Shown one piece after another: positions 1 to 63,345 of a DNA stretch of 64,000 bases. The stretch is taken from positions 1 through 64,000 of the forward strand of contig JAHQRK010000011.1 in NCBI GenBank assembly GCA_019828595.1. Reading direction: 5' to 3'. Under the pieces are notes generated by a model. That model had not been told where the DNA came from. It saw only the letters and a program-made list of their open reading frames with translations, and searched no databases. Source of the stretch: Aphanomyces cochlioides. Taxonomy: Eukaryota > Oomycota > Saprolegniomycetes > Saprolegniales > Verrucalvaceae. Within the stretch, counting starts at the first letter, position 1, and every line of letters starts with the position of its first letter. Position numbers and translations under genes: made by a program.

Positions 1-286
1 AAACCCCAAACCCCAAACCCCCAAACCCCCAAACCCCCAAACCCCAAACCCCAAACCCCCAAACCCCCAAACCCCCAAACCCCCAAACCCCCAAACCCCA
101 AACCCCCAAACCCCCAAACCCCCAAACCCCCAAACCCCCCCAAACCCCCAAACCCCCAAACCCCCAAACCCCCAAACCCCCAAACCCCCAAACCCCCCCC
201 CAAACCCCCCCCCAAACCCCCAAACCCCCAAACCCCCAAACCCCCAAACCCCAAACCCCCAAACCCCCAAACCCCCAAACCCCCAA
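1..286. repeat. Terminal telomeric repeat array, (CCCCCAAA)n
   Basis: The array is made of CCCCCAAA and CCCCAAA units, with a few longer C runs of 7 to 9. The C-rich strand reads 5'->3' from the left edge, which is the orientation expected for a left chromosome end, so the G strand (TTTGGGGG) would run outward as the 3' overhang. Variable C-run length fits telomerase stuttering, but homopolymer sequencing error is possible. It abuts the 5' leader of PLE copy 1 at an AAAGCTCGC junction. Confidence 0.88.
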
Positions 287-2456
287 AGCTCGCTTCGCTC
301 GCGTGGTCCCGTCGCCTCTCCCTGCTTACCCCCAAACCCGTCCCGACCGACCCGCCTAAGGATGGACTCGCCTGTAGCAACCGCCCAGGCTCGCAGCCCG
401 CCGCCCCAAGCCGTCAACCTCGTGACCAACTGCGTCCGAGAGTTCTCTGCCCTCCTGCGTCGAATCGAAGCCAAGCGAAACGCCATCGCCCGCCTCGACG
501 CCCGTGCGCCAAGATCCATCGCCACCAAGATGGACCTGAAAACATCTGCCATGCTGGAAGCCGTGAACCCAGCCCAGGCCACCGCACTCAAGACTCAGTT
601 TGCGAGCCAACTCGCCGCCAACGAAGCCGCCCTCCACGCAACAATCAAGGCATCCGCTCGAGCCGAGCTCGCCGCCCTTGAAGCCACCCTGCCACAAATG
701 CGTGCGTCCTATGTGGACCAACTCAAAAGGTATTTTGAATCTTGTAGCTCATCCCTCGACAGCGCTGCCGCGAACGCCAACCCGGGGAGGCCTGGGGTTC
801 TGGCCGCTGGAGGGCTAGATATCAATTTAATAAAACAAAATTTTCAACAAGATCTTTCCCTTTCTGTGTCCTTTTTAAATGATGCGCTCAACAACGCTTG
901 CTACAAGCACGTCCTCGAAAGCCAAGCTCGCGAAATGAAGAAAGCCGAAGTTGCCGCCGCCCGAGCCGCCGAAGCCATGGAAGTTGACACTCCCAACGAC
1001 ATCCTCGTGGGACAACTAGTCAAACGCGAAATTTCCAAGAATGTTAGCGCTTTACGTAAAGAAGTAAACTTGTTACGTTCTGCGTTAAAGGACAAAGTTG
1101 ATCGACGCTCTTTAAACGACCCGCCCAATCGGCCTGGCAAACCGATTGGGAAGAATGGAAGGAAGCAACGGCAAGCCAAAGAAACGCAACGAAACGCCGA
1201 AAGGCGCAGCAGGCGGCGCACCCAAGAAAAACAGCCGGCTCAACCGAGCCAGAAGAAACACGCCAAGAAAGACAACTAGTCTTGGTCAACAATGCGATTG
1301 ACCCTTCAGCGTCGACGATACGTAATGCAGTTAATATATTTGCGTGTCGCTATGTCGGTGCTGTCGACTTGGAACCCTACAACCTTGCCTACCATGACCT
1401 GACACCATCGGAAACGATGGTCCCTGCTGCTTTACAACGTTTACTTGGCCTTGGCCTGAAATTCTGTCCCACCCACGTCACATCACACCCATTGATGTGG
1501 GGGAACATATGGATTACTTTGAACGAACCATTCGACTAAAATATCTTTTCGAAAGGTCAGATGCTAACTCTAGAAAAAATATGCATCTTGTCCCGCGAGT
1601 GACCGACACCGGTCCAAAAAAATATGCATGCGACAGAAACTCTTGCCAATTCGTCTAATAAGAGGAAACGCGAATGGAAACCATCTCCGGTCTACGTTCG
1701 GAACGCTTCTTTTCAGCCACCTCCAGCGTCCCGCATACTGGAAGAGGCTTTAGACACAACTCGATTAGCTCTTAGATCTATCGTGCTACCTTCACGAAAC
1801 AAGTCCAACTTGAACCGTGAACACAAAGCTCTCCTTAGACTAATTCGAACGTCCAATCTACACGTATTATCCACGGATAAAAATCTTGGTCCAGCTATTA
1901 TGACCAGAGAACAATACATCCAGTGGTGTCTCACACACTTACTAGACACTACAACATACAGGAGATCCCTATCACCACTCATTGCAGTCGTTCGTTTGTT
2001 ACGCACGCGCGTCAGACGCTTCTACCAAACGATTCGCGACGACTACAGTCATCGACATGATTTGGAAAGACACAAAAATCATCCAACATGAACTGGAATT
2101 TAAGGATATCAATAAATTCTATGCTTTGGCTAAAGTCCACAAGCCTACCCTTCAACTAAGGCCTATAGTGTCCAACACATACACTATATTTGAAGGCTTG
2201 TCTAAGTGGTTGGACTTCAAACTGAAACCCATACTCTTGCAAACACAAATCATATCTCAGAGATTCCGACTCCTTTATCGATGTCCTTTCGACGTTGGAT
2301 GCGGATGATGATGATATGCTTGTCAATGTACGATGCAATGCTCTCCGCAATACAAACATCCCTACAGATCGAGCAATTCACATCAATACAGTACATTGTA
2401 AGAGACGATCCATGGTGTGACGCCATTGTAAATGGACTGCAGTTACTTCTCACGTC
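287..2456 (+). mobile_element. Telomere-associated Penelope-like element, copy 1 (3'-truncated)
   Basis: This is a near-identical copy of the element at 2828-6113, with a constant offset of 2540 bp at the start codon. It runs from the leader through the middle of the reverse transcriptase and stops abruptly at CACGTCC, where telomeric repeat takes over. The catalytic YIDD region, the C-terminus and the 3' UTR are missing. Identity is very high up to about 2225. The last 230 bp carry many single-base indels relative to copy 2. It is the outermost and therefore probably the youngest attachment. Confidence 0.85.
362..2456 (+). pseudogene. PLE reverse transcriptase, copy 1, frameshifted and truncated
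   Basis: The reading frame starts at the same ATG context as the intact copy (AAGGATGGACTCG). It encodes the N-terminal coiled-coil and basic region up to 1279, where one A is missing from an A run near 1225. Further single-base indels fall near 1471 (C run) and 2058, plus a cluster in 2225-2400. Later pieces of the protein appear at 1282-1539, 1624-2091 and 1982-2308. Several lesions are in homopolymers, so some may be assembly errors. The loss of everything after the first catalytic Asp region is structural, because telomere repeat follows directly. Confidence 0.82.
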
Positions 2457-2827
2457 CCCAAACCCCAAACCCCCAAACCCCCAAACCCCCAAACCCCCAA
2501 ACCCCCAAACCCCCAAACCCCCAAACCCCCAAACCCCCAAACCCCCAAACCCCCAAACCCCCAAACCCCCAAACCCCCAAACCCCCAAACCCCCAAACCC
2601 CCAAACCCCCAAACCCCCAAACCCCCAAACCCCCCCCCAAACCCCCAAACCCCCAAACCCCCAAACCCCCAAACCCCCAAACCCCCAAACCCCCAAACCC
2701 CCAAACCCCCAAACCCCCAAACCCCCAAACCCCCAAACCCCCAAACCCCCAAACCCCCAAACCCCCAAACCCCCAAACCCCCAAACCCCCAAACCCCCAA
2801 ACCCCCAAACCCCCAAAAACCCCCAAA
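2457..2827. repeat. Interstitial telomeric repeat array between PLE copies
   Basis: This is a 371-bp run of almost uniform CCCCCAAA units in the same orientation as the terminal array, with one longer C run near 2630. It separates truncated PLE copy 1 from full-length copy 2. The simplest reading is that it was once a chromosome end: telomerase capped copy 2, and copy 1 was then attached on top. The 8-bp unit has no stop codon in any frame, so a long spurious ORF reads through it into copy 2. Confidence 0.88.
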
Positions 2828-2901
2828 GCTCGCTTCGCTCGCGTGGTCCCGTCGCCTCTCCCTGCTTACCCCCAAACCCGTCCCGACCGACCCGCCTAAG
2901 G

Positions 2902-5799
2902 ATGGACTCGCCTGTAGCAACCGCCCAGGCTCGCAGCCCGCCGCCCCAAGCCGTCAACCTCGTGACCAACTGCGTCCGAGAGTTCTCTGCCCTCCTGCGT
3001 CGAATCGAAGCCAAGCGAAACGCCATCGCCCGCCTCGACGCCCGTGCGCCAAGATCCATCGCCACCAAGATGGACCTGAAAACATCTGCCATGCTGGAAG
3101 CCGTGAACCCAGCCCAGGCCACCGCACTCAAGACTCAGTTTGCGAGCCAACTCGCCGCCAACGAAGCCGCCCTCCACGCAACAATCAAGGCATCCGCTCG
3201 AGCCGAGCTCGCCGCCCTTGAAGCCACCCTGCCACAAATGCGTGCGTCCTATGTGGACCAACTCAAAAGGTATTTTGAATCTTGTAGCTCATCCCTCGAC
3301 AGCGCTGCCGCGAACGCCAACCCGGGGAGGCCTGGGGTTCTGGCCGCTGGAGGGCTAGATATCAATTTAATAAAACAAAATTTTCAACAAGATCTTTCCC
3401 TTTCTGTGTCCTTTTTAAATGATGCGCTCAACAACGCTTGCTACAAGCACGTCCTCGAAAGCCAAGCTCGCGAAATGAAGAAAGCCGAAGTTGCCGCCGC
3501 CCGAGCCGCCGAAGCCATGGAAGTTGACACTCCCAACGACATCCTCGTGGGACAACTAGTCAAACGCGAAATTTCCAAGAATGTTAGCGCTTTACGTAAA
3601 GAAGTAAACTTGTTACGTTCTGCGTTAAAGGACAAAGTTGATCGACGCTCTTTAAACGACCCGCCCAATCGGCCTGGCAAACCGATTGGGAAGAATGGAA
3701 GGAAGCAACGGCAAGCCAAAGAAACGCAACGAAACGCCGAAAGGCGCAGCAGGCGGCGCACCCAAGAAAAAACAGCCGGCTCAACCGAGCCAGAAGAAAC
3801 ACGCCAAGAAAGACAACTAGTCTTGGTCAACAATGCGATTGACCCTTCAGCGTCGACGATACGTAATGCAGTTAATATATTTGCGTGTCGCTATGTCGGT
3901 GCTGTCGACTTGGAACCCTACAACCTTGCCTACCATGACCTGACACCATCGGAAACGATGGTCCCTGCTGCTTTACAACGTTTACTTGGCCTTGGCCTGA
4001 AATTCTGTCCCACCCCACGTCACATCACACCCATTGATGTGGGGGAACATATGGATTACTTTGAACGAACCATTCGACTAAAATATCTTTTCGAAAGGTC
4101 AGATGCTAACTCTAGAAAAAATATGCATCTTGTCCCGCGAGTGACCGACACCGGTCCAAAAAATATGCATGCGACAGAAACTCTTGCCAATTCGTCTAAT
4201 AAGAGGAAACGCGAATGGAAACCATCTCCGGTCTACGTTCGGAACGCTTCTTTTCAGCCACCTCCAGCGTCCCGCATACTGGAAGAGGCTTTAGACACAA
4301 CTCGATTAGCTCTTAGATCTATCGTGCTACCTTCACGAAACAAGTCCAACTTGAACCGTGAACACAAAGCTCTCCTTAGACTAATTCGAACGTCCAATCT
4401 ACACGTATTATCCACGGATAAAAATCTTGGTCCAGCTATTATGACCAGAGAACAATACATCCAGTGGTGTCTCACACACTTACGAGACACTACAACATAC
4501 AGTAGATCCCTATCACCACTCAATGCAGTCGTTCGTTTGTTACGCACGCGCGTCAGACGCTTCTACCAAACGATTCGCGACGACTACAGTCATCGACATG
4601 ATTGGAAAGACACAAAAATCATCCAACATGAACTGGAATTTAAGGATATCAATAAATTCTATGCTTTGGCTAAAGTCCACAAGCCTACCCTTCAACTAAG
4701 GCCTATAGTGTCCAACACATACACTATATTTGAAGGCTTGTCTAAGTGGTTGGACTTCAAACTGAAACCATACCTCTTGCAAACACAATCATATCTCAGA
4801 GATTCCGACTCCTTTATCGATGTCCTTTCGACGTTGGATGCGGATGATGATGATATGCTTGTCACGTACGATGTAACCTCTCTGTATACAAACATCCCTA
4901 CAGATCGAGCAATTCATATCATACAGTACATTGTAAGAGACGATCCATGGTGTGACGCCATTGTAAATGGACTGCAGTTACTTCTCACGTCCAACTATTT
5001 CACATTCGGCGATACAACATGGCTTCAAATAAATGGTACAGCCATGGGAACTCCCGTTGCACCCACGTACGCTTCACTGTATCTAGCTTATTTTGAGGAA
5101 ACAGTACTACTTCCCATGTTTACTTCCCAACTGAAGTACTACACTCGATACATTGACGATGGATTCTTCATCGTTCGTAATTTCTCAACCAATCGGTTTC
5201 TTGCAAATCACCTCTTTGCACTATTCCGACGAGAATCGAAGCTAAGTTTCACCCATACACTGGATTCAAACACTATCCCCTTCCTGGATTTATGGGTGAT
5301 CAAAGACGGATCAAAGTACACACATAGAACCCATCAAAAGGCTCTTAACCTGTATTTATACATCCCTGCAACAAGTGCACATCCTCCTGGTGTACTCAAA
5401 GGACTCCTATACGGACTTGTAAAGAAATATCGCAAACAAAACCCTCGCGATAGTGACTTTAAAGACTTTATTAACAAGCTTTTGACTCGCCTTATGTATA
5501 GAGGCTACCGAAAGGAACTTCTCTTACGACTGTTTCGTCAGGCACTTGACGCAGTCACGAAACCAAAAGCACATGAGAAAGTCATATACTATAAAGTTCC
5601 GTATGATCCAAACGGGCCTTCTTCTCACGAATTGAAGAGACTATTATACTTTGATTCATATAAAGAAGGTCTACGACAAATCGGGGTAGATCGCATAGCA
5701 ATATGCTATCTCAAACCACCAACCTTAAAGTCTAAACTTAGTCCATCTCGACTCAAACTAGACACCACCCCGACACCTGCTAGTCTACTCGATAACTAG
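2902..5799 (+). CDS. Endonuclease-deficient Penelope-like reverse transcriptase
   Basis: The product is a 965-aa reverse transcriptase expected to copy its own RNA onto chromosome ends. Residues 1-240 are Ala/Glu/Lys-rich and probably coiled coil. A very basic stretch with nuclear-localisation character follows at about 255-310. The RT core shows AKVHKP (about 590), YDVTSLYTNIP with catalytic D657, GTAMGTPVAPTYA and YIDDG with D752-D753; these are the signature motifs of the Penelope class. The C-terminal 210 residues lack a GIY-YIG endonuclease, as in Athena/Coprina-type telomeric PLEs. I chose ATG 2902 because upstream codons are only telomere repeat and leader. All catalytic residues are present, so the enzyme may be functional. 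The family call is by motif, not by alignment. Confidence 0.9.
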   Translation: MDSPVATAQARSPPPQAVNLVTNCVREFSALLRRIEAKRNAIARLDARAPRSIATKMDLKTSAMLEAVNPAQATALKTQFASQLAANEAALHATIKASARAELAALEATLPQMRASYVDQLKRYFESCSSSLDSAAANANPGRPGVLAAGGLDINLIKQNFQQDLSLSVSFLNDALNNACYKHVLESQAREMKKAEVAAARAAEAMEVDTPNDILVGQLVKREISKNVSALRKEVNLLRSALKDKVDRRSLNDPPNRPGKPIGKNGRKQRQAKETQRNAERRSRRRTQEKTAGSTEPEETRQERQLVLVNNAIDPSASTIRNAVNIFACRYVGAVDLEPYNLAYHDLTPSETMVPAALQRLLGLGLKFCPTPRHITPIDVGEHMDYFERTIRLKYLFERSDANSRKNMHLVPRVTDTGPKNMHATETLANSSNKRKREWKPSPVYVRNASFQPPPASRILEEALDTTRLALRSIVLPSRNKSNLNREHKALLRLIRTSNLHVLSTDKNLGPAIMTREQYIQWCLTHLRDTTTYSRSLSPLNAVVRLLRTRVRRFYQTIRDDYSHRHDWKDTKIIQHELEFKDINKFYALAKVHKPTLQLRPIVSNTYTIFEGLSKWLDFKLKPYLLQTQSYLRDSDSFIDVLSTLDADDDDMLVTYDVTSLYTNIPTDRAIHIIQYIVRDDPWCDAIVNGLQLLLTSNYFTFGDTTWLQINGTAMGTPVAPTYASLYLAYFEETVLLPMFTSQLKYYTRYIDDGFFIVRNFSTNRFLANHLFALFRRESKLSFTHTLDSNTIPFLDLWVIKDGSKYTHRTHQKALNLYLYIPATSAHPPGVLKGLLYGLVKKYRKQNPRDSDFKDFINKLLTRLMYRGYRKELLLRLFRQALDAVTKPKAHEKVIYYKVPYDPNGPSSHELKRLLYFDSYKEGLRQIGVDRIAICYLKPPTLKSKLSPSRLKLDTTPTPASLLDN

Positions 5800-5815
5800 T
5801 ACAGGTGTCGGGGTG
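5766..5815 (+). promoter_or_regulatory. Long RNA hairpin overlapping the PLE stop codon
   Basis: A 14-bp perfect inverted repeat (CACCCCGACACCTG at 5766-5779 and its complement at 5802-5815) encloses a second 5-bp stem (CTAGT/ACTAG) with a 10-nt loop and a 2-nt bulge. The TAG stop codon at 5797-5799 forms part of the inner stem. The structure is kept in copy 3 and in the more diverged copy 4. It could mark the RNA for reverse-transcriptase binding or affect termination. No hammerhead core was found in it. Confidence 0.75.
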
Positions 5816-5818
5816 AAA

Positions 5819-5868
5819 CCACCAACCCCCGAAACCCCCAACCCCGAAACCCCTAAACCCCAAACTTC
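5819..5868 (+). repeat. C-rich telomere-like block in PLE 3' UTR
   Basis: Degenerate units such as CCCCCGAAA, CCCCCAA, CCCCGAAA, CCCCTAAA and CCCCAAA lie directly after the stop-codon hairpin. On the RNA they are complementary to a TTTGGGGG overhang. Copy 4 keeps the block with partly different units (near 9450-9486). Bdelloid Terminons are described as having C-rich repeats at the RNA 3' end that help annealing to telomeric overhangs; a similar role here is inference. Confidence 0.7.
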
Positions 5869-5952
5869 CATGGAACTTCCTCCCCAAGGAACTTCCCCCA
5901 TGGAAATCCCCCCAGGGGCCCCTGAAATCCCCCCGGGGCCCCCAAATCCCCC

Positions 5953-5972
5953 TTATCCGGATATCCGGATAA
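5953..5972 (+). repeat. Perfect 20-bp palindrome in PLE 3' UTR
   Basis: TTATCCGGAT followed by ATCCGGATAA forms a perfect palindrome in copies 2 and 3. In copy 4 (near 9558-9578) the outer TTATCCG/CGGATAA arms stay complementary although the centre has changed, which suggests the stem is conserved rather than the sequence. Confidence 0.65.
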
Positions 5973-6073
5973 AGCTGGCAAGCTTCTGAACTGACTAACT
6001 GATCCCCTCAGTCACTTCATGCTTGCACAATCAGCGACATAACTCACACTGAAGAAGGCAAACGAAAGGACCA

Positions 6074-8585
6074 ATGAAATTAGATTACGAGTGCCTACAA
6101 CCAATTAAAACGAGGCCTGGGGTTCTGGCCGCTGGAGGGCTAGATATCAATATAATAAAACAAAATTTTCAACAAGATCTTTCCCTTTCTGTGTCCTTTT
6201 TAAATGATGCGCTCAACAACGCTTGCTACAAGCACGTCCTCGAAAGCCAAGCTCGCGAAATGAAGAAAGCCGAAGTTGCCGCCGCCCGAGCCGCCGAAGC
6301 CATGGAAGTTGACACTCCCAACGACATCCTCGTGGGACAACTAGTCAAACGCGAAATTTCCAAGAATGTTAGCGCTTTACGTAAAGAAGTAAACTTGTTA
6401 CGTTCTGCGTTAAAGGACAAAGTTGATCGACGCTCTTTAAACGACCCGCCCAATCGGCCTGGCAAACCGATTGGGAAGAATGGAAGGAAGCAACGGCAAG
6501 CCAAAGAAACGCAACGAAACGCCGAAAGGCGCAGCAGGCGGCGCACCCAAGAAAAAACAGCCGGCTCAACCGAGCCAGAAGAAACACGCCAAGAAAGACA
6601 ACTAGTCTTGGTCAACAATGCGATTGACCCTTCAGCGTCGACGATACGTAATGCAGTTAATATATTTGCGTGTCGCTATGTCGGTGCTGTCGACTTGGAA
6701 CCCTACAACCTTGCCTACCATGACCTGACACCATCGGAAACGATGGTCCCTGCTGCTTTACAACGTTTACTTGGCCTTGGCCTGAAATTCTGTCCCACCC
6801 CACGTCACATCACACCCATTGATGTGGGGGAACATATGGATTACTTTGAACGAACCATTCGACTAAAATATCTTTTCGAAAGGTCAGATGCTAACTCTAG
6901 AAAAAATATGCATCTTGTCCCGCGAGTGACCGACACCGGTCCAAAAAATATGCATGCGACAGAAACTCTTGCCAATTCGTCTAATAAGAGGAAACGCGAA
7001 TGGAAACCATCTCCGGTCTACGTTCGGAACGCTTCTTTTCAGCCACCTCCAGCGTCCCGCATACTGGAAGAGGCTTTAGACACAACTCGATTAGCTCTTA
7101 GATCTATCGTGCTACCTTCACGAAACAAGTCCAACTTGAACCGTGAACACAAAGCTCTCCTTAGACTAATTCGAACGTCCAATCTACACGTATTATCCAC
7201 GGATAAAAATCTTGGTCCAGCTATTATGACCAGAGAACAATACATCCAGTGGTGTCTCACACACTTACGAGACACTACAACATACAGTAGATCCCTATCA
7301 CCACTCAATGCAGTCGTTCGTTTGTTACGCACGCGCGTCAGACGCTTCTACCAAACGATTCGCGACGACTACAGTCATCGACATGATTGGAAAGACACAA
7401 AAATCATCCAACATGAACTGGAATTTAAGGATATCAATAAATTCTATGCTTTGGCTAAAGTCCACAAGCCTACCCTTCAACTAAGGCCTATAGTGTCCAA
7501 CACATACACTATATTTGAAGGCTTGTCTAAGTGGTTGGACTTCAAACTGAAACCATACCTCTTGCAAACACAATCATATCTCAGAGATTCCGACTCCTTT
7601 ATCGATGTCCTTTCGACGTTGGATGCGGATGATGATGATATGCTTGTCACGTACGATGTAACCTCTCTGTATACAAACATCCCTACAGATCGAGCAATTC
7701 ATATCATACAGTACATTGTAAGAGACGATCCATGGTGTGACGCCATTGTAAATGGACTGCAGTTACTTCTCACGTCCAACTATTTCACATTCGGCGATAC
7801 AACATGGCTTCAAATAAATGGTACAGCCATGGGAACTCCCGTTGCACCCACGTACGCTTCACTGTATCTAGCTTATTTTGAGGAAACAGTACTACTTCCC
7901 ATGTTTACTTCCCAACTGAAGTACTACACTCGATACATTGACGATGGATTCTTCATCGTTCGTAATTTCTCAACCAATCGGTTTCTTGCAAATCACCTCT
8001 TTGCACTATTCCGACGAGAATCGAAGCTAAGTTTCACCCATACACTGGATTCAAAACACTATCCCCTTCCTGGATTTATGGGTGATCAAAGACGGATCAA
8101 AGTACACACATAGAACCCATCAAAAGGCTCTTAACCTGTATTTATACATCCCTGCAACAAGTGCACATCCTCCTGGTGTACTCAAAGGACTCCTATACGG
8201 ACTTGTAAAGAAATATCGCAAACAAAACCCTCGCGATAGTGACTTTAAAGACTTTATTAACAAGCTTTTGACTCGCCTTATGTATAGAGGCTACCGAAAG
8301 GAACTTCTCTTACGACTGTTTCGTCAGGCACTTGACGCAGTCACGAAACCAAAAGCACATGAGAAAGTCATATACTATAAAGTTCCGTATGATCCAAACG
8401 GGCCATCTTCTCACGAATTGAAGAGACTATTATACTTTGATTCATATAAAGAAGGTCTACGACAAATCGGGGTAGATCGCATAGCAATATGCTATCTCAA
8501 ACCACCAACCTTAAAGTCTAAACTTAGTCCATCTCGACTCAAACTAGACACCACCCCGACACCTGCTAGTCTACTCGATAACTAG
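6074..8585 (+). pseudogene. PLE reverse transcriptase, copy 3, 5'-truncated with one frameshift
   Basis: The open frame begins at an ATG in the 3' UTR of copy 2 (6074) and is fused by chance to the truncated coding region at about 6114. It carries the coiled-coil end, basic domain and the whole RT core including YIDD. An extra A near 8056 shifts the frame, so the product ends at 8113. The rest of the C-terminus is open at 8082-8585. The lesion lies in an A run and might be a sequencing error, but the missing N-terminal 142 codons are real. Confidence 0.8.
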
Positions 8586-8898
8586 TACAGGTGTCGGGGT
8601 GAAACCACCAACCCCCGAAACCCCCAACCCCGAAACCCCTAAACCCCAAACTTCCATGGAACTTCCTCCCCAAGGAACTTCCCCCATGGAAATCCCCCCA
8701 GGGGCCCCTGAAATCCCCCCGGGGCCCCCAAATCCCCCTTATCCGGATATCCGGATAAAGCTGGCAAGCTTCTGAACTGACTAACTGATCCCCTCAGTCA
8801 CTTCATGCTTGCACAATCAGCGACATAACTCACACTGAAGAAGGCAAACGAAAGGACCAATGAAATTAGATTACGAGTGCCTACAACCAATTAAAACG
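6114..8898 (+). mobile_element. Penelope-like element, copy 3 (5'-truncated)
   Basis: This copy is joined directly to the 3' end of copy 2 with no telomere repeat between; the join shares a GAG trinucleotide. It begins at the sequence matching about codon 143 of the intact ORF and then runs to the normal 3' end, including the stop-codon hairpin, C-rich block and palindrome. Against copy 2 I see only about three differences: one substitution near 6151, one near 8405 and one added A near 8056. Confidence 0.85.
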
Positions 8899-9018
8899 AG
8901 CCCTGGGAGGCTCCGCCTCCCAGACCCTCCGGACGCCCTTCGGGCGTGACGCGCTAAAGCGCGTGGTCGCTTCGCTCCGTAGTTGTAGCGTTAATTTTTT
9001 ATTCACCCCTTTGTGACA
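8899..9018. repeat. Cluster of three GC-rich perfect hairpins
   Basis: Immediately after copy 3 come three separate perfect stem-loops: CTGGGAGGC/GCCTCCCAG with a 3-nt loop, ACGCCC/GGGCGT with a TTC loop, and ACGCGCT/AGCGCGT with an AA loop. They are followed by GTCGCTTCGCTCC and an AT-rich spacer. The block lies just upstream of the leader of copy 4, so it may be an upstream part of the element lost from copies 1 and 2, or a separate small insertion. Confidence 0.6.
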
Positions 9019-9690
9019 AAGCTCGCTTCGCTCGCGTGGTCCCGTCGCCTCTCCCTGATTACCCCCAAACCCTCGCGATAGTGACTTTAAAGGCTTTATT
9101 AACAAGCTTTGACTCGCCTTATGTATAGAGGCTATCGAAAGGAACTTCTCGTGCGACTATTCCGTCAGGCACTTAACGCCGTCATCAAGCCAAAGACACA
9201 CGAGAATGTCATATACTATAAAGTCCCATATGATCCCAACGGACCAACTTCACACGAATTAAAGAAATTACTACATTTTGACTCGTATAAAGAAGGTCTA
9301 CGACAAATCGGGGTAGATCGCATAGCGATATGTTATCTTAAACCACCAACTTTAAAGTCTAAACTTAGTCCATCCCGACTTAAACTAGACACCACCCCGA
9401 CACCTGCTAGTCTACTCGATAACTAGTACAGGTGTCGGGGTTAAGCCACCAACCCCCAAAACCACCAATCCCCCAAACCCCCAAACTTCCATGGAACTTC
9501 CCCCATGGAAATCCCCCGAGGGCCCCCGAAATCCCCCCGGGGCCCCCATTCCCCCATTATCCGAATTTTCCGGATAATATACCTGGCAAGCCTCTGAATT
9601 GACTAATCCCCTCAGTCACTTCATGTTTGCACAATCAGCGACGTAACTCACACTGACGAAGACAAACGAAAGGACCAATGAAATTAGATA
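9019..9690 (+). mobile_element. Penelope-like element, copy 4 (internally deleted, more diverged)
   Basis: The PLE leader (AAAGCTCGCTTCGCTCG and onward) runs to ACCCCCAAAC and then jumps straight to sequence matching about position 5440 of copy 2. Nearly the whole ORF is missing. The join shares AAACCC between the leader and the ORF. The remaining C-terminus and 3' UTR differ from copies 1-3 by many substitutions, so this is the oldest copy. It keeps the stop-codon hairpin, the C-rich block and the ATCCG stem, and it leads directly into the two co-oriented ORFs at 9727 and 10128. Confidence 0.8.
9109..9426 (+). pseudogene. C-terminal remnant of PLE reverse transcriptase, copy 4
   Basis: The frame corresponds to the last 105 or so residues of the 965-aa protein, from LTRLMYRGYRKELL to the shared C-terminus ASLLDN. 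One T is missing in the preceding AAGCTTT run compared with copy 2. The differences from copy 2 are mostly silent or conservative, which suggests past selection on this domain before the deletion. Confidence 0.75.
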
Positions 9691-9726
9691 ACGTTTAAAA
9701 TCAACCAATGAAATACGAGCCGAAAA

Positions 9727-10104
9727 ATGGATCCACTATGTGAATACTTGGCACTCGAATACGGAGCAGCAACAAGAACTATGAAACGCATGAAAGAAAA
9801 CCACGAACCAGAAATGAAGTTTCAAATTGCACTCAACTTGCAAACAGACGGAAGACTTCAAGAAGCACTGGACGACCTCGACACAGCAGACGCACGACTC
9901 GAAAACTATGAAGAAACAATGACCATGTCAAGACAACGATTAATGGAACAACACTTTCAAATCATCAAATACAAGGAAAATTTCAACAAAATGGCATTCG
10001 AAATATTCAAACTACGACGACAGCTGGCAGTACAAAAAGAGAAGAACAAGAGTCCTTCGAAAAAAGAAGAAACATCCGGCGAAACAACAGAAGAAGACAA
10101 CTAA
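9727..10104 (+). CDS. Small coiled-coil protein (putative structural ORF of the telomeric unit)
   Basis: The predicted product is a 125-aa, highly charged, almost entirely helical protein. Residues 20-105 are rich in Glu, Lys, Leu and Met with heptad-like spacing, and the tail is Lys/Ser then Glu-rich. I recognise no catalytic motif. It lies about 36 bp beyond the 3' UTR of PLE copy 4, on the same strand, and 23 bp before the Rep-like ORF. Rotifer Terminons carry co-oriented coiled-coil ORFs beside the PLE reverse transcriptase, so a structural or RNA-packaging role is possible, but this is inferred from position only. Confidence 0.6.
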   Translation: MDPLCEYLALEYGAATRTMKRMKENHEPEMKFQIALNLQTDGRLQEALDDLDTADARLENYEETMTMSRQRLMEQHFQIIKYKENFNKMAFEIFKLRRQLAVQKEKNKSPSKKEETSGETTEEDN

Positions 10105-10127
10105 AACATAATTCATTTTACATTTCG

Positions 10128-10421
10128 ATGTCTACTACCAAGATCAGCTACAAGCATGAAGACCGACAATGGGACGTCCGAATCAACGTGCAAACCGACG
10201 AATACCTCAAAACAATCACCGACAACATTACTCGAGAGCATACTGAACGTGGAGTACTCAAATACATTCTCATCGGTGGATGCGAAATCGGCACCAAACC
10301 AAGTCAAGACGACTACAAAATACGACACGTCCATATTGCTGCCATCTTCTACAATCGAGTCTCTAAAGCTGCCATTATCAAAAATTGGGGTATCATCGAA
10401 GGCAAGGGGTATTATCGTTGA
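10128..10421 (+). CDS. Rep-like (HUH endonuclease) N-terminal domain, probably truncated
   Basis: The 97-aa product has the layout of a rolling-circle Rep nuclease domain: a beta strand (WDVRINVQ, possible motif I), a GGCEIG segment, the metal-binding HVHIAAIF (motif II, H-x-H), then a helix with KAAIIKNWGI and GKGYY. The catalytic Tyr motif (YxxK) expected further on is absent because a stop comes right after GKGYYR, so the protein is likely truncated or continued by an unseen exon. It is co-oriented with the PLE copies and the coiled-coil ORF. Rep proteins are among the accessory ORFs reported for rotifer Terminons. An alternative is a captured CRESS-DNA-virus fragment. Confidence 0.55.
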   Translation: MSTTKISYKHEDRQWDVRINVQTDEYLKTITDNITREHTERGVLKYILIGGCEIGTKPSQDDYKIRHVHIAAIFYNRVSKAAIIKNWGIIEGKGYYR

Positions 10422-11046: not shown

Positions 11047-11691
11047 GAGCTTTTGCCAAAAGTGGGGACTATTTTACTAATTTTACCAAAAGTGCGACAA
11101 TTATGTCAAAAGTGGGGGCTGAATGATAGAAAGTGGGCCTCACCAAAGAGTTTCTGATGGCCCCCACATTTGAAAATCTTCTTCTCCGTGGCCCCCACTA
11201 ATGAAGAAAGTCAGGTTTCCCTGACCAAAGTGTGATGCCACTTTTTCTAGAAGTTGCAAGGAAAACCGAAACACAAATCTTCGGAAAAAACAGCCTACAA
11301 TGTAATGCCGCAAAGAAGGTAGAGAGGACAAGGGATGTAGAGCGTAAGCGCAACAAGTACGTTCCCAAGTTAAAAAGATATATTATCTGCCAATCTACAG
11401 CAAGAAAATCATGTTCTTGTACAGAGCAAGGCCTTGCCCTGGCGGTCCACCTTGGATGGTGTCTTCTTCGTCTACCATGGCAATTCTTCCATTGACTGTC
11501 GTGTCACACTAATTAGGCGAATTTTATACTATATATTAATTTTAAAATTAATTTAAATAATGGCCCCCACTGTTGGAAATTCCCCAATAGGGGGTCAAAA
11601 AGCCCCACTTTTGCGAAAGCCCCCACTTTTGACATAATTGTCCCACTATTGGTCAAATTAGTAAAATAGTCCCCACTTTTGGCAAAAGTCC
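11047..11691. mobile_element. Mutator-like MITE with 9-bp target duplication
   Basis: Terminal inverted repeats of 74 bp lie at 11047-11120 and 11618-11691 (outer ends GAGCTTTTGCC and GGACTTTTGCC) with only a few mismatches. The element is flanked by a perfect 9-bp direct repeat, TGACAAATG, at 11038-11046 and 11692-11700. A 9-bp duplication is typical of Mutator-like elements. The 645-bp body has several GTGGGGGC subterminal repeats and no transposase, so it is non-autonomous. A MULE transposase relic occurs about 9 kb away at 20905. Confidence 0.85.
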
Positions 11692-41866: not shown

Positions 41867-42562
41867 TTACACTGAAAGTGCCTGACCAGTCGCTCCGGAC
41901 GCCGGTGGTGGGCCTTGCCCAGATCCCGAGGGGCCGGGATGATTGTCTGGTGGACCTTCGAGGCCTTGGGAGTCAAAATCAGGATCGACATTGAGCGCGA
42001 TGTATTTTCTCAACTTCGCCAACCTTTCACGACGGTGATGCTGAGTGAAGGCCGTGGGGTGTTGCGGGCCATCCAAGTCAATGTACTGACCCGTCTGTGG
42101 GTCTCGGACTGACCAGGTTTGGTTCCCATATCGCTTCTCAATACTGCGAAGGAGAGTGGATCGATTACGCACTAACCCACGGTCATCATTAGGCTTCACG
42201 CCATGGATGGCGTGGTATTTCGCCAAGTACTTGGGATTGTGAACCCGACAGTGGAGCCAGTTGTTGGCACATTGGCCTTGTTTCCCCACCTTTGCGCTTT
42301 GACCATAGCAACGGGTGCGGGCAGGATCGTCATGGTGCACTCGTTCGTGCCGGAGAAAACACGCATCCCAAGGCAGTTGACACTTTGACCCGTCCGACAT
42401 TCGCCCGTTACAGAGGCGGGTGGAGGTGGGAGCTGGAGCAGGAGGAACAGCCACATTTATCCGTTGTTGTAAGCGATCACGGATTTGGTCCAATTCAGCC
42501 GGCGCGCGGGGTCCCGAAGGATAACGAAGTTCGTGAACTTGGCGCATCAAGGTCCGAATCAT
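41867..42562 (-). CDS. Antisense ORF 3 of gypsy 2, Cys/His-rich protein
   Basis: On the minus strand from 42562, 231 codons encode a protein with repeated Cys/His modules: LCNGRMSDGSKC, CFLRHERVHH, RCYGQSAKVGKQGQC and CRVHNPKYLAKYHAI. These could bind zinc. A Pro/Gly-rich tail follows. The open frame extends upstream of the ATG as APADNFLGAISELLHSYG, overlapping the end of antisense ORF 2, so the two may be one protein broken by a frameshift or joined by recoding. Function is unknown. Confidence 0.6.
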   Translation of the reverse strand: MIRTLMRQVHELRYPSGPRAPAELDQIRDRLQQRINVAVPPAPAPTSTRLCNGRMSDGSKCQLPWDACFLRHERVHHDDPARTRCYGQSAKVGKQGQCANNWLHCRVHNPKYLAKYHAIHGVKPNDDRGLVRNRSTLLRSIEKRYGNQTWSVRDPQTGQYIDLDGPQHPTAFTQHHRRERLAKLRKYIALNVDPDFDSQGLEGPPDNHPGPSGSGQGPPPASGATGQALSV

Positions 42563-42608
42563 GGTACCGTAAGAATGGAGCAGTTCAGAAATCGCGCCGA
42601 GGAAATTG

Positions 42609-43961
42609 TCAGCCGGGGCCAGGAGGAACCTCCGATCGATAATGCTCTAGTCCCCGGTCGAAACTCTCTATGGAAGCCCGCAAAGTGCTGTCAACAGTCG
42701 AACGCTCGAGTCGAGGGGCAAGATACTGGTCGATGTCCTGATCAGAGTCGTAAGGTTCCTCATCGGAGCTCGCATCTTCAAGGGCCAGGTATCCATCTTT
42801 ACGGGCTTTTAAAGTTCGCGACGAAAGTTGAGCATGTTTGGTCTTGATGATCTTTCGCGGTGGAGAGGTGCCAGTCCCTTGCTGAGCCGATCTTTTGAGT
42901 GCCGACTTCCCCTTGGACTTACTTTGCCGCCCTGACTTCGCCCCTTTGTCATTCCCTGACTTTTCCTCGCTTGAACCATCGGATTTGGCGTCCCATCCTT
43001 GATCTTGACTGCTACATGACGTGTCCTCAGAAAGCCAAGAACGACCAAGTGTCGCTGGAGTGATTGAAAGATTGTCGTCTTGAAGGGGCTCGCTGCCAGA
43101 ACCAACCTCCCCTTCAGCCGGTCCTACACCAGCCCCTCGTTTGATGTGGGGCTGTGCACCGTCGGCCGCGCCGTCTTTGGCGCTAGGCGATGAAGACGGG
43201 GAAGAAATAGTCAGGTCCACAATTTCTCCACGATGGAACCCAATTCGGTCATGAAACGTAACGGCTGAATCCTTCGCAAGCTCCATCTCCATGCGCCTTG
43301 CAGCTTGGCGTCCACGTGCCAAACGTCTAACGATCTCCGTGTCTGCTTCAATCTGACCCCGAACGCCGTCCAAGAGTTCATGCAATCGCTGCATCCATCG
43401 TTGATACATGCCGTGGGCCGGAAGATTATCCGGAACCTGTTCCAACTGGCTTTGCGCCTGCACCACCGCATCCTCCAAAACAATCTCCTGGGTCTGCAAA
43501 CTTTCGATGCGATGGGCCCGGCGGACTTCCCAATTCATGATGTTGAAAAGGTTGGACAAGGTTTGATCGTACGCTGCAGTGGAAGTTACGACGTTGTCAG
43601 CGTATTGAGCCTGTTTTTCGCCGTCCACCACCATTGCATTTGTGTAATCCTCGTGCGCTAAATCCACCAGTTGGGACATGGAGTGGTCCAAGCGTTGCAT
43701 GATCTCGACGGCTTCGTCAAAATGCTGGTGCAGATAAGTGGCAGGCGATCCTTTGATGGACTCGTAGTGTTCAGCATTTTGGCGCTCCCTTATCATGGTC
43801 GTCTCCTCGTAAACTTGAATTCTGTCGACAAGATCGTCCCCAGTGGTGGTTGCCCGGAGTTCTTCAACAAGAGCCATAGCGTCGGCAATGAGAACGGCGT
43901 CGTTAGCCACTTGATCTTGGTGAAATTGGTCGGCCATGGACGAATTGTTTCGTTTGGGCAA
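42609..43961 (-). CDS. Antisense ORF 2 of gypsy 2, coiled-coil and acidic protein
   Basis: From ATG 43961 the minus strand encodes 450 residues. The first 230 are helical with long charged heptads (VVQAQSQLEQVPD, ADTEIVRRLARGRQAARRMEME). The next 200 are Ser/Asp/Lys-rich and disordered, with basic clusters (KSGRQSKSKGKSALKRS, PPRKIIKTKH) that look like nuclear signals. An acidic end follows (DASSDEEPYDSDQDID). I know no family for it. It lies antisense between pol and the 3' LTR, where plant Tat elements often carry an antisense ORF. Confidence 0.65.
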   Translation of the reverse strand: MPKRNNSSMADQFHQDQVANDAVLIADAMALVEELRATTTGDDLVDRIQVYEETTMIRERQNAEHYESIKGSPATYLHQHFDEAVEIMQRLDHSMSQLVDLAHEDYTNAMVVDGEKQAQYADNVVTSTAAYDQTLSNLFNIMNWEVRRAHRIESLQTQEIVLEDAVVQAQSQLEQVPDNLPAHGMYQRWMQRLHELLDGVRGQIEADTEIVRRLARGRQAARRMEMELAKDSAVTFHDRIGFHRGEIVDLTISSPSSSPSAKDGAADGAQPHIKRGAGVGPAEGEVGSGSEPLQDDNLSITPATLGRSWLSEDTSCSSQDQGWDAKSDGSSEEKSGNDKGAKSGRQSKSKGKSALKRSAQQGTGTSPPRKIIKTKHAQLSSRTLKARKDGYLALEDASSDEEPYDSDQDIDQYLAPRLERSTVDSTLRASIESFDRGLEHYRSEVPPGPG

Positions 43962-44151
43962 GGCAGATCAAAACCGAGAATGACTGATCAAGGCGAAATA
44001 AGGAAGGAGAAAGGTGGTGACCAAAGAACAGAAAACAGAAAAGACGAGACAACTGGAAGACTGAACCGTGATGTGACGTTGCAATGACCATGAGAACGCA
44101 ATACAGAAAACTGATGTGATTGACGATACAATTGACAATGCGCTATCATCT

Positions 44152-44781
44152 TTATCGATTACAAGTGGTCGCTCTCATCATCCGTGGTCGATTGATTATC
44201 TGAGTGTGCACGATGTTTTTGTTCAAGATGACGACCAGCAGCCCTTTGGACGCAAGAGGGTTGGCGCATGGAGTGCCACGGCGAGTAAGCATACCACTCG
44301 GAGGACCTTGAGGGCGTCGACGAGGCCTGCCTTCGCTGGCCGACAACAAAGCCACCGCTTGAGTTAAGCGGTCGACTTCAGCACTCAGCTCCTGTATGCG
44401 TATGTCAGCTTGTTCCAAATGACGCCCTTGGTCAGAAATACGCAAATCTAACTGAGTGATATGGAGACCTTGATTTTGGAGTTCTGATCTTGGGCTGTGG
44501 GCCGCTGGGCCAGGATGATTTGGCTGGAAGTCAGTATCAGTGGAATGCAGTGAGGGCGCACCAGAAGCTCGTGGTACTTGCCCTGGATCAGTCCGTGGCG
44601 ACTGGCGACGCTGAGATGAGGTTGTCTCCCCCTCAGCGAATGACGACGACGCTGGCAACGTGGTTGAGCGACGTCCTTGTGAGCTTGATGATGCAGCAGG
44701 GGTGCGTTTGGATTGACGATCATTTGAAGATTCACTAGCGCGAGACGAAGCCAGTCGCGCTTGGCCGGTTGAAGCCCGCAT
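44152..44781 (-). CDS. Antisense ORF 1 of gypsy 2, Ser-rich protein with coiled coil
   Basis: The 209-codon minus-strand frame begins 172 bp from the 3' LTR. The first 100 residues are Ser/Arg/Pro-rich. A clear heptad segment follows (LHITQLDLRISDQGRHLEQA, then IRIQELSAEVDRLTQAVALL), suggesting a coiled-coil dimer. The tail is basic. It is the first gene met by a transcript starting in the 3' LTR on the antisense strand, followed by antisense ORFs 2 and 3. Confidence 0.55.
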   Translation of the reverse strand: MRASTGQARLASSRASESSNDRQSKRTPAASSSSQGRRSTTLPASSSFAEGETTSSQRRQSPRTDPGQVPRASGAPSLHSTDTDFQPNHPGPAAHSPRSELQNQGLHITQLDLRISDQGRHLEQADIRIQELSAEVDRLTQAVALLSASEGRPRRRPQGPPSGMLTRRGTPCANPLASKGLLVVILNKNIVHTQIINRPRMMRATTCNR

Positions 44782-44953
44782 CAGCCCGACACAAAGAGTA
44801 CAAAGGTCTTAAGGCGAAAACGAATCTGGCGAAGTCGGGCGAAGTGCCGAGAAGAGTGGCCAGAAACGCTGATACAAGACGTACAGTGTACCCAGCCAGC
44901 AATGCAGTGATCTGGCGCTCCCCATTCAGAGTCACACCAAGACCAGGGTGGCT

Positions 44954-59648: not shown

Positions 59649-60446
59649 TAATAAAAACTCTCTCCCCTTTTTCACGAAATGTGATGTTATTTTTAAACTC
59701 GTGTTAAAAAGGATTATCCGGATTCGAGCAATCTGGAGGAGTTTGCTTGGACTTCACGCACACCGTTCTTTCGCATGAATTCAAGTGCTTGATCTCACGA
59801 GCGTCCTGAGTGCTCAATTTGAGCGCATTTTAGGCTTTCCAACGCATTCTGGGATGTTTTTGTCCCAATGCCGCTTCTTCCCATCATTATGGACCCTAAA
59901 TTGATTGCAAATGACATTAAAACTAAACTTATTTACTACACTAAATAAATATTTTGCCCTATTTACGTATTTTGCTGAGCACTGTAAACATGCGCCTCCT
60001 AGGTGGTTGTCCAACACCTGGGTGGAGCGACACAGAGAAAAGAACTCCACGCTTTGAATTCACGAAGGGAAATGTGAAGTGAGACCATGCACGGGTTGAT
60101 GGCTATACTTCCATGCCAACTAAGCATTGCACCTTACTTCATGGGGTTAGAAAGTTGTGGTCAGTGTAAGGATTATGAAACGAAAGGAATGTACCGTATC
60201 GATATCAAGCACGAGAAACCTCAAAGCAGTGCTCGCTCCCCTAATTTTTGCCAATAAGATACTGCTGGATGTTTGTCCAGCATTTTCAATCATAATGTGG
60301 ACTCAATTCATTTCACTATGCTTTTCAAATTTATCGTGGCGAAAATGCTTGACACTCGTCCAGCACATGACTGCAACTTACGGATACTGTCCAGCAAAAA
60401 CCGGAGAATGTTTCTCTCAGTCTCGAACTTTCTGGGGAGAAGAAAC
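59649..60446. other. Upstream region of the CRN gene
   Basis: No other gene is supported. CCAACACCTGGGTGG and CCTAGGTGGTTG near 59998-60024 form a short stem. The promoter could not be located by eye. Confidence 0.4.
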
Positions 60447-61598
60447 ATGGACGAGGTGAAGCTGGTGTGCGCGGTGTATGACGAAGCAGTTATGTTTTCT
60501 GTGAAGATCGCTGGCGATGCGAAAGTCGAAGCGCTGCAGGAGGCCATCTTCGACAAGATGCGATACAAAGAGCGCTACAGCTTTGACGCAAGCGATTTGA
60601 CGCTGTACTTGGCGAAGAAGAACGGCGTGTGGCTCAAGAGCGACCGCACACTCAAGCCGTTTTTGAAAAAAAGACGACAAGAGGACCGTGATTATGCAGA
60701 GATGATTCCAAACAGGACGCTTGATGACGATGATTACTTTGGACACGATTTCCAGCCTGGTGGCAAGGAGATTCACGTGTTGGTGGAACTCCCAACGCAA
60801 GTTGCTGCTCCGAGCGACGTTATACCCAGTTTGCCACAAACTACACTACACCGTCACCCCGAACGTCTCAAACGATGGGCTGCAATCAATGCAATGATTC
60901 GTCAGAAGAATCAAGCCGCGATTCAAGCCGCGAACGACATGACGAAGAAAGAAGACAAAAAAACAAACAAAAAGCGGAAAAATGACGATATCGACAAGTC
61001 TATCGGCTATGCGAGTCTTTGCTGGGAAGACATCAAACCTATTTACAACTTCGACGATTCTTACGAACTTCAATCAAGTGATATTCCTGATGCCGTCATC
61101 GAGCTACTCCTCGCTCATATTCGTGACTTGCGGGAACTCTATGGACAAATCTCCGATGGGAAAGAAGCCAAGAGATTGTTTTTTATCGCCCCGATCCTTG
61201 AGGCAGTCAGTCGTCTGCTCGGGGACGTCCGCATACTTGTCGAAGAAGACGTGGTTGGAAGGAATGTGCTCCTGAAAGGTCGATTCGAGTTTGTGCTCAA
61301 GCGTGGCACCAAGAGAATTTCAACTGTACAAGCGAAGCGTGAAAATATGCTGCAGGGAGTGGTTCAGAATGTGACGGGGCTGGAAGCACTGGCTGATGTC
61401 GAAGATCTTACTGTGGCGTATGGAATCGTGACCAATTTTCTCGAGTGGAGGTTCTTGATCAGTGAAGACATGAAGGTCCGAAAGCATGAGTATTCTCTCC
61501 GTACCACCAATACCATACCGTCGTTTCAAGGATTGAAAGAAATCGTCGGGAAGATTTATCAGATGCTCACGAATGAGCAATCAGTATCTTCCATATGA
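60447..61598 (+). CDS. Crinkler (CRN)-family effector with LYLAK motif
   Basis: The 383-aa product starts MDEVKLVCAV; I preferred ATG 60447 to the upstream in-frame ATG because CRN proteins begin this way. The ubiquitin-like header holds DLTLYLAKKNG (LYLAK at 53-57, the variant known from Aphanomyces and some chytrids), and HVLVELP (110-116) ends the CRN N-terminal region. A Lys-rich nuclear signal lies near 167-179. The C-terminal module (about 190-375) resembles the PD-(D/E)xK-type nuclease domain of CRNs: GRFEFVL with E281, then STVQAK (294-297), where Gln occupies the usual Glu/Asp place, so catalysis may be lost. CRNs act in host-cell nuclei. The gene is intact. Confidence 0.8.
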   Translation: MDEVKLVCAVYDEAVMFSVKIAGDAKVEALQEAIFDKMRYKERYSFDASDLTLYLAKKNGVWLKSDRTLKPFLKKRRQEDRDYAEMIPNRTLDDDDYFGHDFQPGGKEIHVLVELPTQVAAPSDVIPSLPQTTLHRHPERLKRWAAINAMIRQKNQAAIQAANDMTKKEDKKTNKKRKNDDIDKSIGYASLCWEDIKPIYNFDDSYELQSSDIPDAVIELLLAHIRDLRELYGQISDGKEAKRLFFIAPILEAVSRLLGDVRILVEEDVVGRNVLLKGRFEFVLKRGTKRISTVQAKRENMLQGVVQNVTGLEALADVEDLTVAYGIVTNFLEWRFLISEDMKVRKHEYSLRTTNTIPSFQGLKEIVGKIYQMLTNEQSVSSI

Positions 61599-62586: not shown

Positions 62587-62996
62587 AAAAACATTTTTCT
62601 CGTTTCGACTTCAACGATCGAGTCCTGCATGCGTGGTACAATGAAATTGATGCCACAACGCAGTAAAGCCACCATCTTTGTCTCGCACGCATGTCAAAGC
62701 TGCAGCGACTCCAGTCCCAAGCTGACCATTCAATCCGTCGTTTGTCCGAGCTCATTCAGCGGAGGGTTTCCACGCGCATCGCCAGTCTTGTGACTGCCAT
62801 CTGTATGGCTCAATTCCGCTGCTTGAGTTCGCATGTCATCAACAGTTATTCCAGACAACTATCTAAGGACAATCCAATTTCTTTACTGGGAGATGCGGGA
62901 AATCAACAATTTAAAAAAATACGTCACTATTTTAAAAAAATATTGCTCAAAACTTTTTTAAATTACATGATTGTTGGTGTGTACAACATTTACAAA
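62587..62996. other. Spacer with an unassigned short ORF
   Basis: A 105-codon plus-strand frame (62691-63008) starts MSKLQRLQSQADHSIRRLSE and runs into the tandem repeat. It looks helical at the start, but no family is recognised. Confidence 0.25.
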
Positions 62997-63272
62997 TCTA
63001 TTACTTAAGGCTCTAACGCAACACGTAAGTACGAGACTAAGTACGAGAGTAATTTTTACATACAAACGTCAAGTCAACAAATGAGCAATCTATTACTTAA
63101 GGCTCTAACGCAACACGTAAGTACGAGACTAAGTACGAGAGTAATTTTTACATACAAACGTCAAGTCAACAAATGAGCAATCTATTACTTAAGGCTCTAA
63201 CGCAACACGTAAGTACGAGACTAAGTACGAGAGTAATTTTTACATACAAACGTCAAGTCAACAAATGAGCAA
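62997..63272. repeat. Tandem repeat, 92-bp unit, three copies
   Basis: The unit starts TCTATTACTTAAGGCTCTAA at 62997, 63089 and 63181, and the three copies look identical. Inside it, TAAGTACGAGA is itself doubled. Identity among copies suggests recent expansion. Confidence 0.88.
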
Positions 63273-63345
63273 TTTTATATACTTTATCCAAGTACAAAAT
63301 TAGCAATTTTTATATACTTTATCCAAGTACAAAATTAGCAATTTG
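63273..63345. repeat. Tandem repeat, about 34-bp unit, two copies
   Basis: TATATACTTTATCCAAGTAC occurs twice with AAAATTAGCAATTT between. The GCAA ends of this unit and of the 92-bp unit are shared, which suggests slippage from a common border. Confidence 0.75.

What the first reader, a model, noticed from the sequence alone, without database searches (positions are those of the whole stretch)
1..10421. Terminon-like, chromosome-end-extending retroelement cluster outside rotifers
Seen: four co-oriented copies of an endonuclease-less Penelope-type reverse transcriptase with 5' ends outward, two telomeric arrays between and beside them, a C-rich 3' UTR, and two co-oriented accessory ORFs (coiled coil, Rep-like). 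Known: bdelloid Terminons combine Athena PLE reverse transcriptases, C-rich 3' repeats, telomere attachment and Rep or coiled-coil ORFs. Inference: a comparable system operates here in a host that looks like an oomycete or other protist, which may be undescribed.
Basis: partly seen in the sequence, partly recalled or inferred. Interest (0 to 1): 0.92.

Follow-up and report, generated by a model that had tools for sequence, protein, structure and literature searches.

The report
Chromosome-end retroelement array in an oomycete
The end of an oomycete chromosome carries a short pile of copies of a reverse-transcriptase element that probably copies itself onto bare chromosome ends, a known kind of element caught here next to an unusual eight-letter telomere repeat.

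Summary
Four co-oriented copies of an endonuclease-less Penelope-like element (PLE) fill window 288-9719, 5' ends outward. Telomere-type (CCCCCAAA)n arrays lie at 1-287 and 2456-2827. No further PLE match was found in the window. The host is an oomycete. Copy 2 is complete: one 965-aa ORF whose model aligns best with telomerases by VIA-align. No GIY-YIG domain was found in it or in 120 listed relatives.

Best reading: a telomere-associated, endonuclease-deficient PLE that primes on exposed chromosome ends and is then capped by telomerase. This kind is known in animals, fungi, protists and plants (PMC3846280). "Terminon-like" is weak: the unit is 3.3 kb, no hammerhead ribozyme was found, the Rep-like ORF is truncated, and both accessory ORFs lie outside the unit.

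The outermost 2.45 kb is doubtful: copy 1's differences cluster beside the inner array and look like read errors. Genome-wide terminal bias stays untested: the genome search did not complete 25 of 25 times.

New here: TTTGGGGG where oomycetes are reported as TTTAGGG, and a telomerase-template-like word in the 5' leader.

The parts
1..287 (+). outer telomere-type array (CCCCCAAA)n at the window's left end; G-rich strand TTTGGGGG runs toward the end
   Evidence: TRF; run counts; unit counts
288..2455 (+). PLE copy c1: intact 5' end, 3'-truncated where it meets the inner array; 99.08% identical to c2, 17 of 20 differences at 1943-2385; possibly unpolished or chimeric
   Evidence: classes of difference counted
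2456..2827 (+). inner telomere-type array (CCCCCAAA)n
2828..6114 (+). PLE copy c2, complete unit (ORF 2902-5799, 965 aa: N-terminal long helices, telomerase-like RT, no EN domain found)
2869..2879 (+). CCCCCAAACCC in the 5' leader, 1.4 telomere repeats, telomerase-template-like; also at 329-339 (c1) and 9062-9072 (c4)
   Evidence: read; 3 of 5000 dinucleotide shuffles of the c2 leader hold it
5766..5815 (+). hairpin across the stop codon, 14-bp perfect stem; kept in c3 and, but for the outermost pair, in c4
   Evidence: 14 against at most 10 in 20 shuffles
5826..5865 (+). telomere-like C-rich tract in the 3' UTR (also 8612-8651 and 9470-9486)
   Evidence: 0 of 5000 shuffles reach the c2 count, but 297 of 5000 reach the c4 count
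6112..8900 (+). PLE copy c3, 5'-truncated, joined head-to-tail to c2 with a GAG overlap; ORF broken near 8053
8901..9017 (+). filler of strong hairpins between c3's 3' end and c4's 5' end, origin unknown
   Evidence: folds; nothing beyond an 18-base word (E 0.33) in the rest of the window
9018..9719 (+). PLE copy c4: 5' leader (one mismatch in 54) joined at AAACCC to a diverged 3' part (about 85-86% identical)
9727..10104 (+). small ORF, 125 aa, possible coiled coil; not part of the PLE unit
10128..10421 (+). Rep-like (HUH-type) ORF, 97 aa, truncated before the C-terminal part seen in relatives; not part of the PLE unit

Best explanation
Window 1-9719 is the end of an oomycete chromosome built up by an endonuclease-deficient Penelope-like retroelement. 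Inferred mechanism: its RNA, whose 3' UTR ends in ACGAG and carries a hairpin and telomere-like C-rich tract, is copied by its telomerase-like RT from the free 3'-OH of an exposed chromosome end. No endonuclease is needed, and each copy therefore lies with its 5' end outward. Early drop-off leaves 5'-truncated copies (c3). A full-length cDNA ends in ...GCGAGCTTT-3', and TTT is a ready primer for telomerase to add GGGGGTTTGGGGG; this caps c2. Shown here: orientation, junctions, truncations, telomere-type caps, no recognisable endonuclease, telomerase-like predicted fold. Inferred: priming, capping and current activity.
Confidence: 0.75

Rival explanations
1. The outermost 2455 bases (array 1 and c1) are not in the chromosome as drawn. 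They come from one noisy or chimeric long read, or from a join of two telomere arrays, and the true end is array 2 followed by c2.
For: c1 has 3 differences from c2 in 288-1942 (all one-base length changes in runs) and 17 in 1943-2455; 11 of 20 are indels, 8 of these in runs of two or more, whereas c2 and c3 differ at 3 places in 2.78 kb. c1 has a 3' truncation that end-priming does not readily give. Both arrays start with two C4 units and end in the same junction.
Against: Both arrays have the right polarity; 3'-truncated copies could arise by internal priming; diverged old copies also carry changes. How the contig was sequenced is unknown here.
Confidence: 0.35
2. The copies were multiplied by recombination or replication at chromosome ends (like the Y' elements of yeast), not by repeated retrotransposition onto the end.
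For: c1, c2 and c3 are nearly identical; an array-element-array layout resembles recombination-amplified subtelomeres (recalled); a probable contaminant contig, L001, holds a head-to-tail PLE tandem, 92.7% identical, offset 3442.
Against: The three copies have different ends (c1 3'-truncated, c3 5'-truncated) and c4 is a separate, diverged lineage, which unequal exchange alone does not give.
Confidence: 0.2
3. A Terminon-like composite: PLE RT, coiled-coil ORF and Rep-like ORF are one mobile system.
For: Co-orientation within 10.4 kb of the end; Rep and coiled-coil ORFs occur in Terminons (PMC6431247, passages); the first Foldseek row of the Rep-like model is a circovirus Rep domain (E 2.9e-3, none at E<=0.001) and its two conserved histidines sit on a strand.
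Against: Both ORFs lie downstream of c4's 3' end; the complete unit c2 has neither; no PLE match lies inward of them in the window; the Rep-like ORF stops before the conserved C-terminal part and none is encoded nearby; no hammerhead match. The relatives found come without context (contigs of at most 3986 bases), so they speak neither way.
Confidence: 0.06

Closest known systems
Telomere-associated EN-deficient PLEs of protists and fungi (Gladyshev and Arkhipova 2007, recalled; summarised in PMC3846280)
   Same: No endonuclease found, terminal position, 5' end outward, telomeric cap at the 5' end, telomere-like repeats in the 3' region (the last recalled)
   Different: One fused ORF in 3.3 kb instead of two ORFs in 4-6 kb (sizes from PMC6431247); TTTGGGGG repeat; template-like word in the 5' leader; best relatives 53-54% identical
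Athena and Terminons of bdelloid rotifers (PMC6431247, PMC7943196; passages)
   Same: EN-deficient PLE RT, head-to-tail copies, 5' truncation, telomeric repeats between copies, a fold followed by telomere-like repeats near the 3' end
   Different: Not giant, no accessory ORFs in the unit, no hammerhead found, fold is a plain hairpin across the stop codon, Athena kinship untested
Canonical Penelope/Poseidon elements (PMC11167929, passages)
   Same: Penelope-type RT, N-terminal extension, tandem copies possible
   Different: No GIY-YIG domain found; 212 residues after YIDD against a median of 227 in 93 relatives
HeT-A/TART/TAHRE of Drosophila (PMC5537684, abstract start and passages)
   Same: Works alike: end-attachment, polarity, head-to-tail chains (polarity and chains recalled)
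   Different: Non-LTR retrotransposons, another RT class; there they stand in for telomerase, here telomere-type repeats cap the element

Membership tests
Penelope-like elements | RT of the PLE class, sister to telomerase | tested here: met
   548 relatives at E<=1e-3 among the 7993 best candidates (120 listed); predicted fold, the 13 best VIA rows all telomerase. The name PLE itself rests on recalled motifs: no name shown says Penelope
EN-deficient telomere-associated PLE | No GIY-YIG endonuclease | tested here: met
   No Pfam match; 0 of 120 listed relatives by precomputed Pfam (accession recalled) or crude motif
EN-deficient telomere-associated PLE | 5' end capped by host telomeric repeats | tested here: met
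   c1 and c2; that the repeat is the host's telomere at other ends was not testable
EN-deficient telomere-associated PLE | Copies confined to chromosome ends | tested here: inconclusive
   4 copies in the outer 9.7 kb, no match in the other 54 kb of the window; rest of genome unreachable
Terminon | Athena-clade RT | not testable with these tools
   No relative named Athena among the 120 listed; the tree of 33 rows has no reference clade
Terminon | Giant unit with accessory ORFs inside it | tested here: not met
   Complete unit 3.3 kb with one ORF
Terminon | 3' hammerhead ribozyme followed by telomeric repeats | tested here: not met
   No Rfam hammerhead match up to E=1 in the c2 and c4 3' regions; the core-like CTGANGA..GAAA at 6049, 8835, 9653 has no pairable stem II
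CRESS-type Rep (HUH endonuclease), ORF 10128-10421 | HUH motif in a Rep fold plus catalytic tyrosine | tested here: inconclusive

The most novel reading that the evidence does not exclude
The element caps itself. Its RNA carries a telomerase-type template, CCCCCAAACCC, in the 5' leader, conserved in all three copies that keep the leader, and its first bases are AAA, so finished cDNA ends in TTT. Its telomerase-like RT could realign that end on its own template and add TTTGGGGG repeats. The departure from the oomycete TTTAGGG repeat would then be dictated by the element, a retroelement that does telomerase's job.
Probability: 0.05. Interest if true: 0.96.

Novelty: new member of a known kind. 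Interest (0 to 1): 0.5.

Why it matters
PLE reverse transcriptases are held to share an ancestor with telomerase (PMC3846280, passages), and oomycete examples are little described: a 2025 paper still states that PLEs had not been reported in the supergroup that holds the stramenopiles (PMC12477816, passage), while others list protists (PMC3846280). A young, complete copy at a chromosome end gives a tractable case for end-priming without an endonuclease. If TTTGGGGG proves to be this oomycete's telomere, it is a change of telomere repeat in a group reported as TTTAGGG (PMC7046594, PMC7003069, passages), and lets one ask whether a retroelement and a telomere sequence evolve together.

Tried and rejected
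Whole-genome mapping of copies and of the repeat: the same genome search was unanswered (25 of 25).

Relatives with context: viral contigs gave none for the PLE (11 stretches, 0 confirmed), the Rep-like ORF (2 stretches, 0 confirmed) or the repeat (0). Genome contigs gave three distant loci in bacterial MAGs, probably contamination, L001-L003, 28-30% identical (38 stretches, 3 confirmed).

RT tree with Athena, Coprina and EN-bearing PLEs: no named references were found, so only a tree of 33 rows (29 of 120 listed relatives, the window and 3 loci) was built, midpoint-rooted. The window joins a supported group of 13 that includes Pythium oligandrum P0018.

Hammerhead ribozyme: rejected. A weak MIR815 match (E 0.028) was taken as chance. 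The Terminon composite was rejected for the reasons given. Pfam gave only sub-threshold matches to the accessory ORFs and none to the window's RT; for relatives of the Rep-like ORF likewise; PHROGs, asked for the accessory ORFs and two relatives only, gave nothing better than E 0.059. P0018's RT matched RVT_1 below its cutoff.

VIA-align rows for the Rep-like model are mostly ribosomal S6-like and other ferredoxin-like folds, so Rep is not proven. The PDB sequence search with the Rep-like profile gave one chance row; with the PLE profile its best rows were group II intron-like RTs (E 5e-4).

Gladyshev and Arkhipova 2007 was not held, nor was another DOI that I tried. An earlier count said that the named Crinkler neighbours are all oomycetes; two of the 83 rows are chytrid fungi (P0191, P0199), and this report is corrected for it.

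Full report
What is there. The window starts with (CCCCCAAA)n and the left 9.7 kb holds four same-strand copies of one retroelement. c2 (2828-~6114) is complete: a 74-base leader, one ORF of 965 aa (2902-5799), and a 3' UTR of about 315 bases. c3 (~6112-8900) lacks the first ~500 bases and is otherwise 99.89% identical. c1 (288-2455) has the intact 5' end but stops inside the ORF at the inner array. c4 (~9018-9719) is the leader, one mismatch in 54, joined at a shared AAACCC to a 3' part only about 85-86% identical to c2.

Chance. CCCCCAAA occurs 29 and 44 times in the two arrays, 8 times within the PLE stretches and twice in the other 54 kb; TTTGGGGG was found in none of the five stretches counted. 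The leader word CCCCCAAACCC is met in 3 of 5000 dinucleotide shuffles of the leader; the c2 3' UTR count of telomere-like words in 0 of 5000; the c4 count in 297 of 5000, so c4 alone is not convincing. The 14-bp stem across the stop codon compares with at most 10 in 20 shuffles.

Host. The ORF at 60258-61595 is a Crinkler (PF20147, E 2.8e-18). A search returned the window's own protein (100% identical over 86% of the query) on a contig of 2,604,000 bases; the nearest named relatives are Phytophthora, Plasmopara and Aphanomyces, with two chytrid fungi (35-39%) far down the 83 rows. The Rep-like ORF has a relative in Aphanomyces astaci (67%) and the PLE one in Pythium oligandrum (45%). So the host is taken as an oomycete; the genus is not settled. 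TTTAGGG is given for oomycetes in PMC7046594, and for probable telomeres of P. oligandrum in PMC7003069 (passages). A search for TTTGGGG with telomer- listed 19 papers, none recognisably on this repeat by title and abstract start; I did not open them.

How it works. Every copy has its 5' end toward the window's left end. That is what priming at a free 3' end gives, and is the mechanism written for EN-deficient PLEs in PMC3846280 (passages). c2, c3 and c4 all end in ACGAG, so the RNA ends there or just beyond. By inference, c3's truncated 5' end served as the end onto which c2 was added. c1, c2 and c4 share the 5' terminus AAAGCTCGC; in c1 and c2 the AAA coincides with the AAA of CCCCCAAA, so the cDNA end ...GCTTT-3' is a natural telomerase primer (inference). 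A result against the simple picture: no 3' end in this window meets telomeric DNA through the C-rich tract. The only such junction is c1's, inside the ORF.

Doubt about the outermost part. c1 differs from c2 at 20 places, 17 of them in its last 513 bases; 11 are indels. That suits an unpolished or chimeric read. Array 2 capping c2 does not depend on c1.

Terminon or not. PMC6431247 (passages) lists giant units, accessory ORFs within them and a hammerhead before the telomeric repeats. The unit here is 3.3 kb with one ORF; Rfam gives no hammerhead, and the core-like CTGANGA..GAAA at 6049, 8835 and 9653 has no pairable stem II. The two accessory ORFs lie beyond c4. The Rep-like one has a conserved H-x-H, and a relative (P0124, mean pLDDT 68, ten-residue means of 68-89 over residues 1-100) has a Rep-compatible fold. 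But common ferredoxin-like folds score as high, and the window ORF ends before the part that relatives such as P0124 continue with. An analogy remains: hairpin then C-rich telomere-like repeats near the 3' end.

Verdict. A young, terminal EN-deficient PLE array: a new family of a known kind, in an oomycete with an unusual end repeat. 'Outside rotifers' is not new in itself (PMC3846280). In print the stramenopile record is contradictory: PMC12477816 says none was known in that supergroup (passage), whereas my recall of the 2007 abstract names stramenopiles; I could not open it. In the listings and passages that I saw from ten paper searches I found no description of telomeric PLEs in an oomycete; the library holds open-licence papers only.

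Noticed in passing
window 33996 to beyond 45253: Gypsy-type LTR element: direct repeats from 33996 and 44954 (300 nt reported at 100%; one search shows one mismatch), with three antisense ORFs (41867-44808) after pol, without Pfam matches at 1e-3.
   Followed up: partly
window 60258-61595: Crinkler-family ORF about 60 kb from the window's telomeric end, with relatives in many oomycetes and two chytrids.
   Followed up: partly
window 8901-9017: 117-base filler made of strong hairpins between c3 and c4; its style resembles the PLE leader; possibly a small non-autonomous element.
   Followed up: partly
window 62995-63273: Three exact copies of a 92-base unit.
   Followed up: no
window 10128-10421 and P0121-P0136: A small Rep-like family, one member named (Aphanomyces astaci) and the rest without a species name; several (P0126-P0129, P0132-P0134) change sequence right after SKG, which suggests an intron there that the window copy lacks.
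   Followed up: partly
L001 1-5811: A contig in a bacterial MAG that is a PLE head-to-tail tandem, offset 3442, 92.7% identical; probably eukaryotic contamination.
   Followed up: partly
L002 1-239 and 3080-3320: PLE-bearing contig in a Chlamydiia MAG with direct terminal repeats, 98% identical; probably contamination.
   Followed up: no
window 2902-5799, residues ~345-500: Telomerase alignments extend about 150 residues further N-terminal than those of most other polymerases listed, hinting at a shared domain before the RT.
   Followed up: no
window 11050-11120 and 11618-11688: 71-nt inverted repeats, 96% complementary, 497 nt apart; MITE-like.
   Followed up: no
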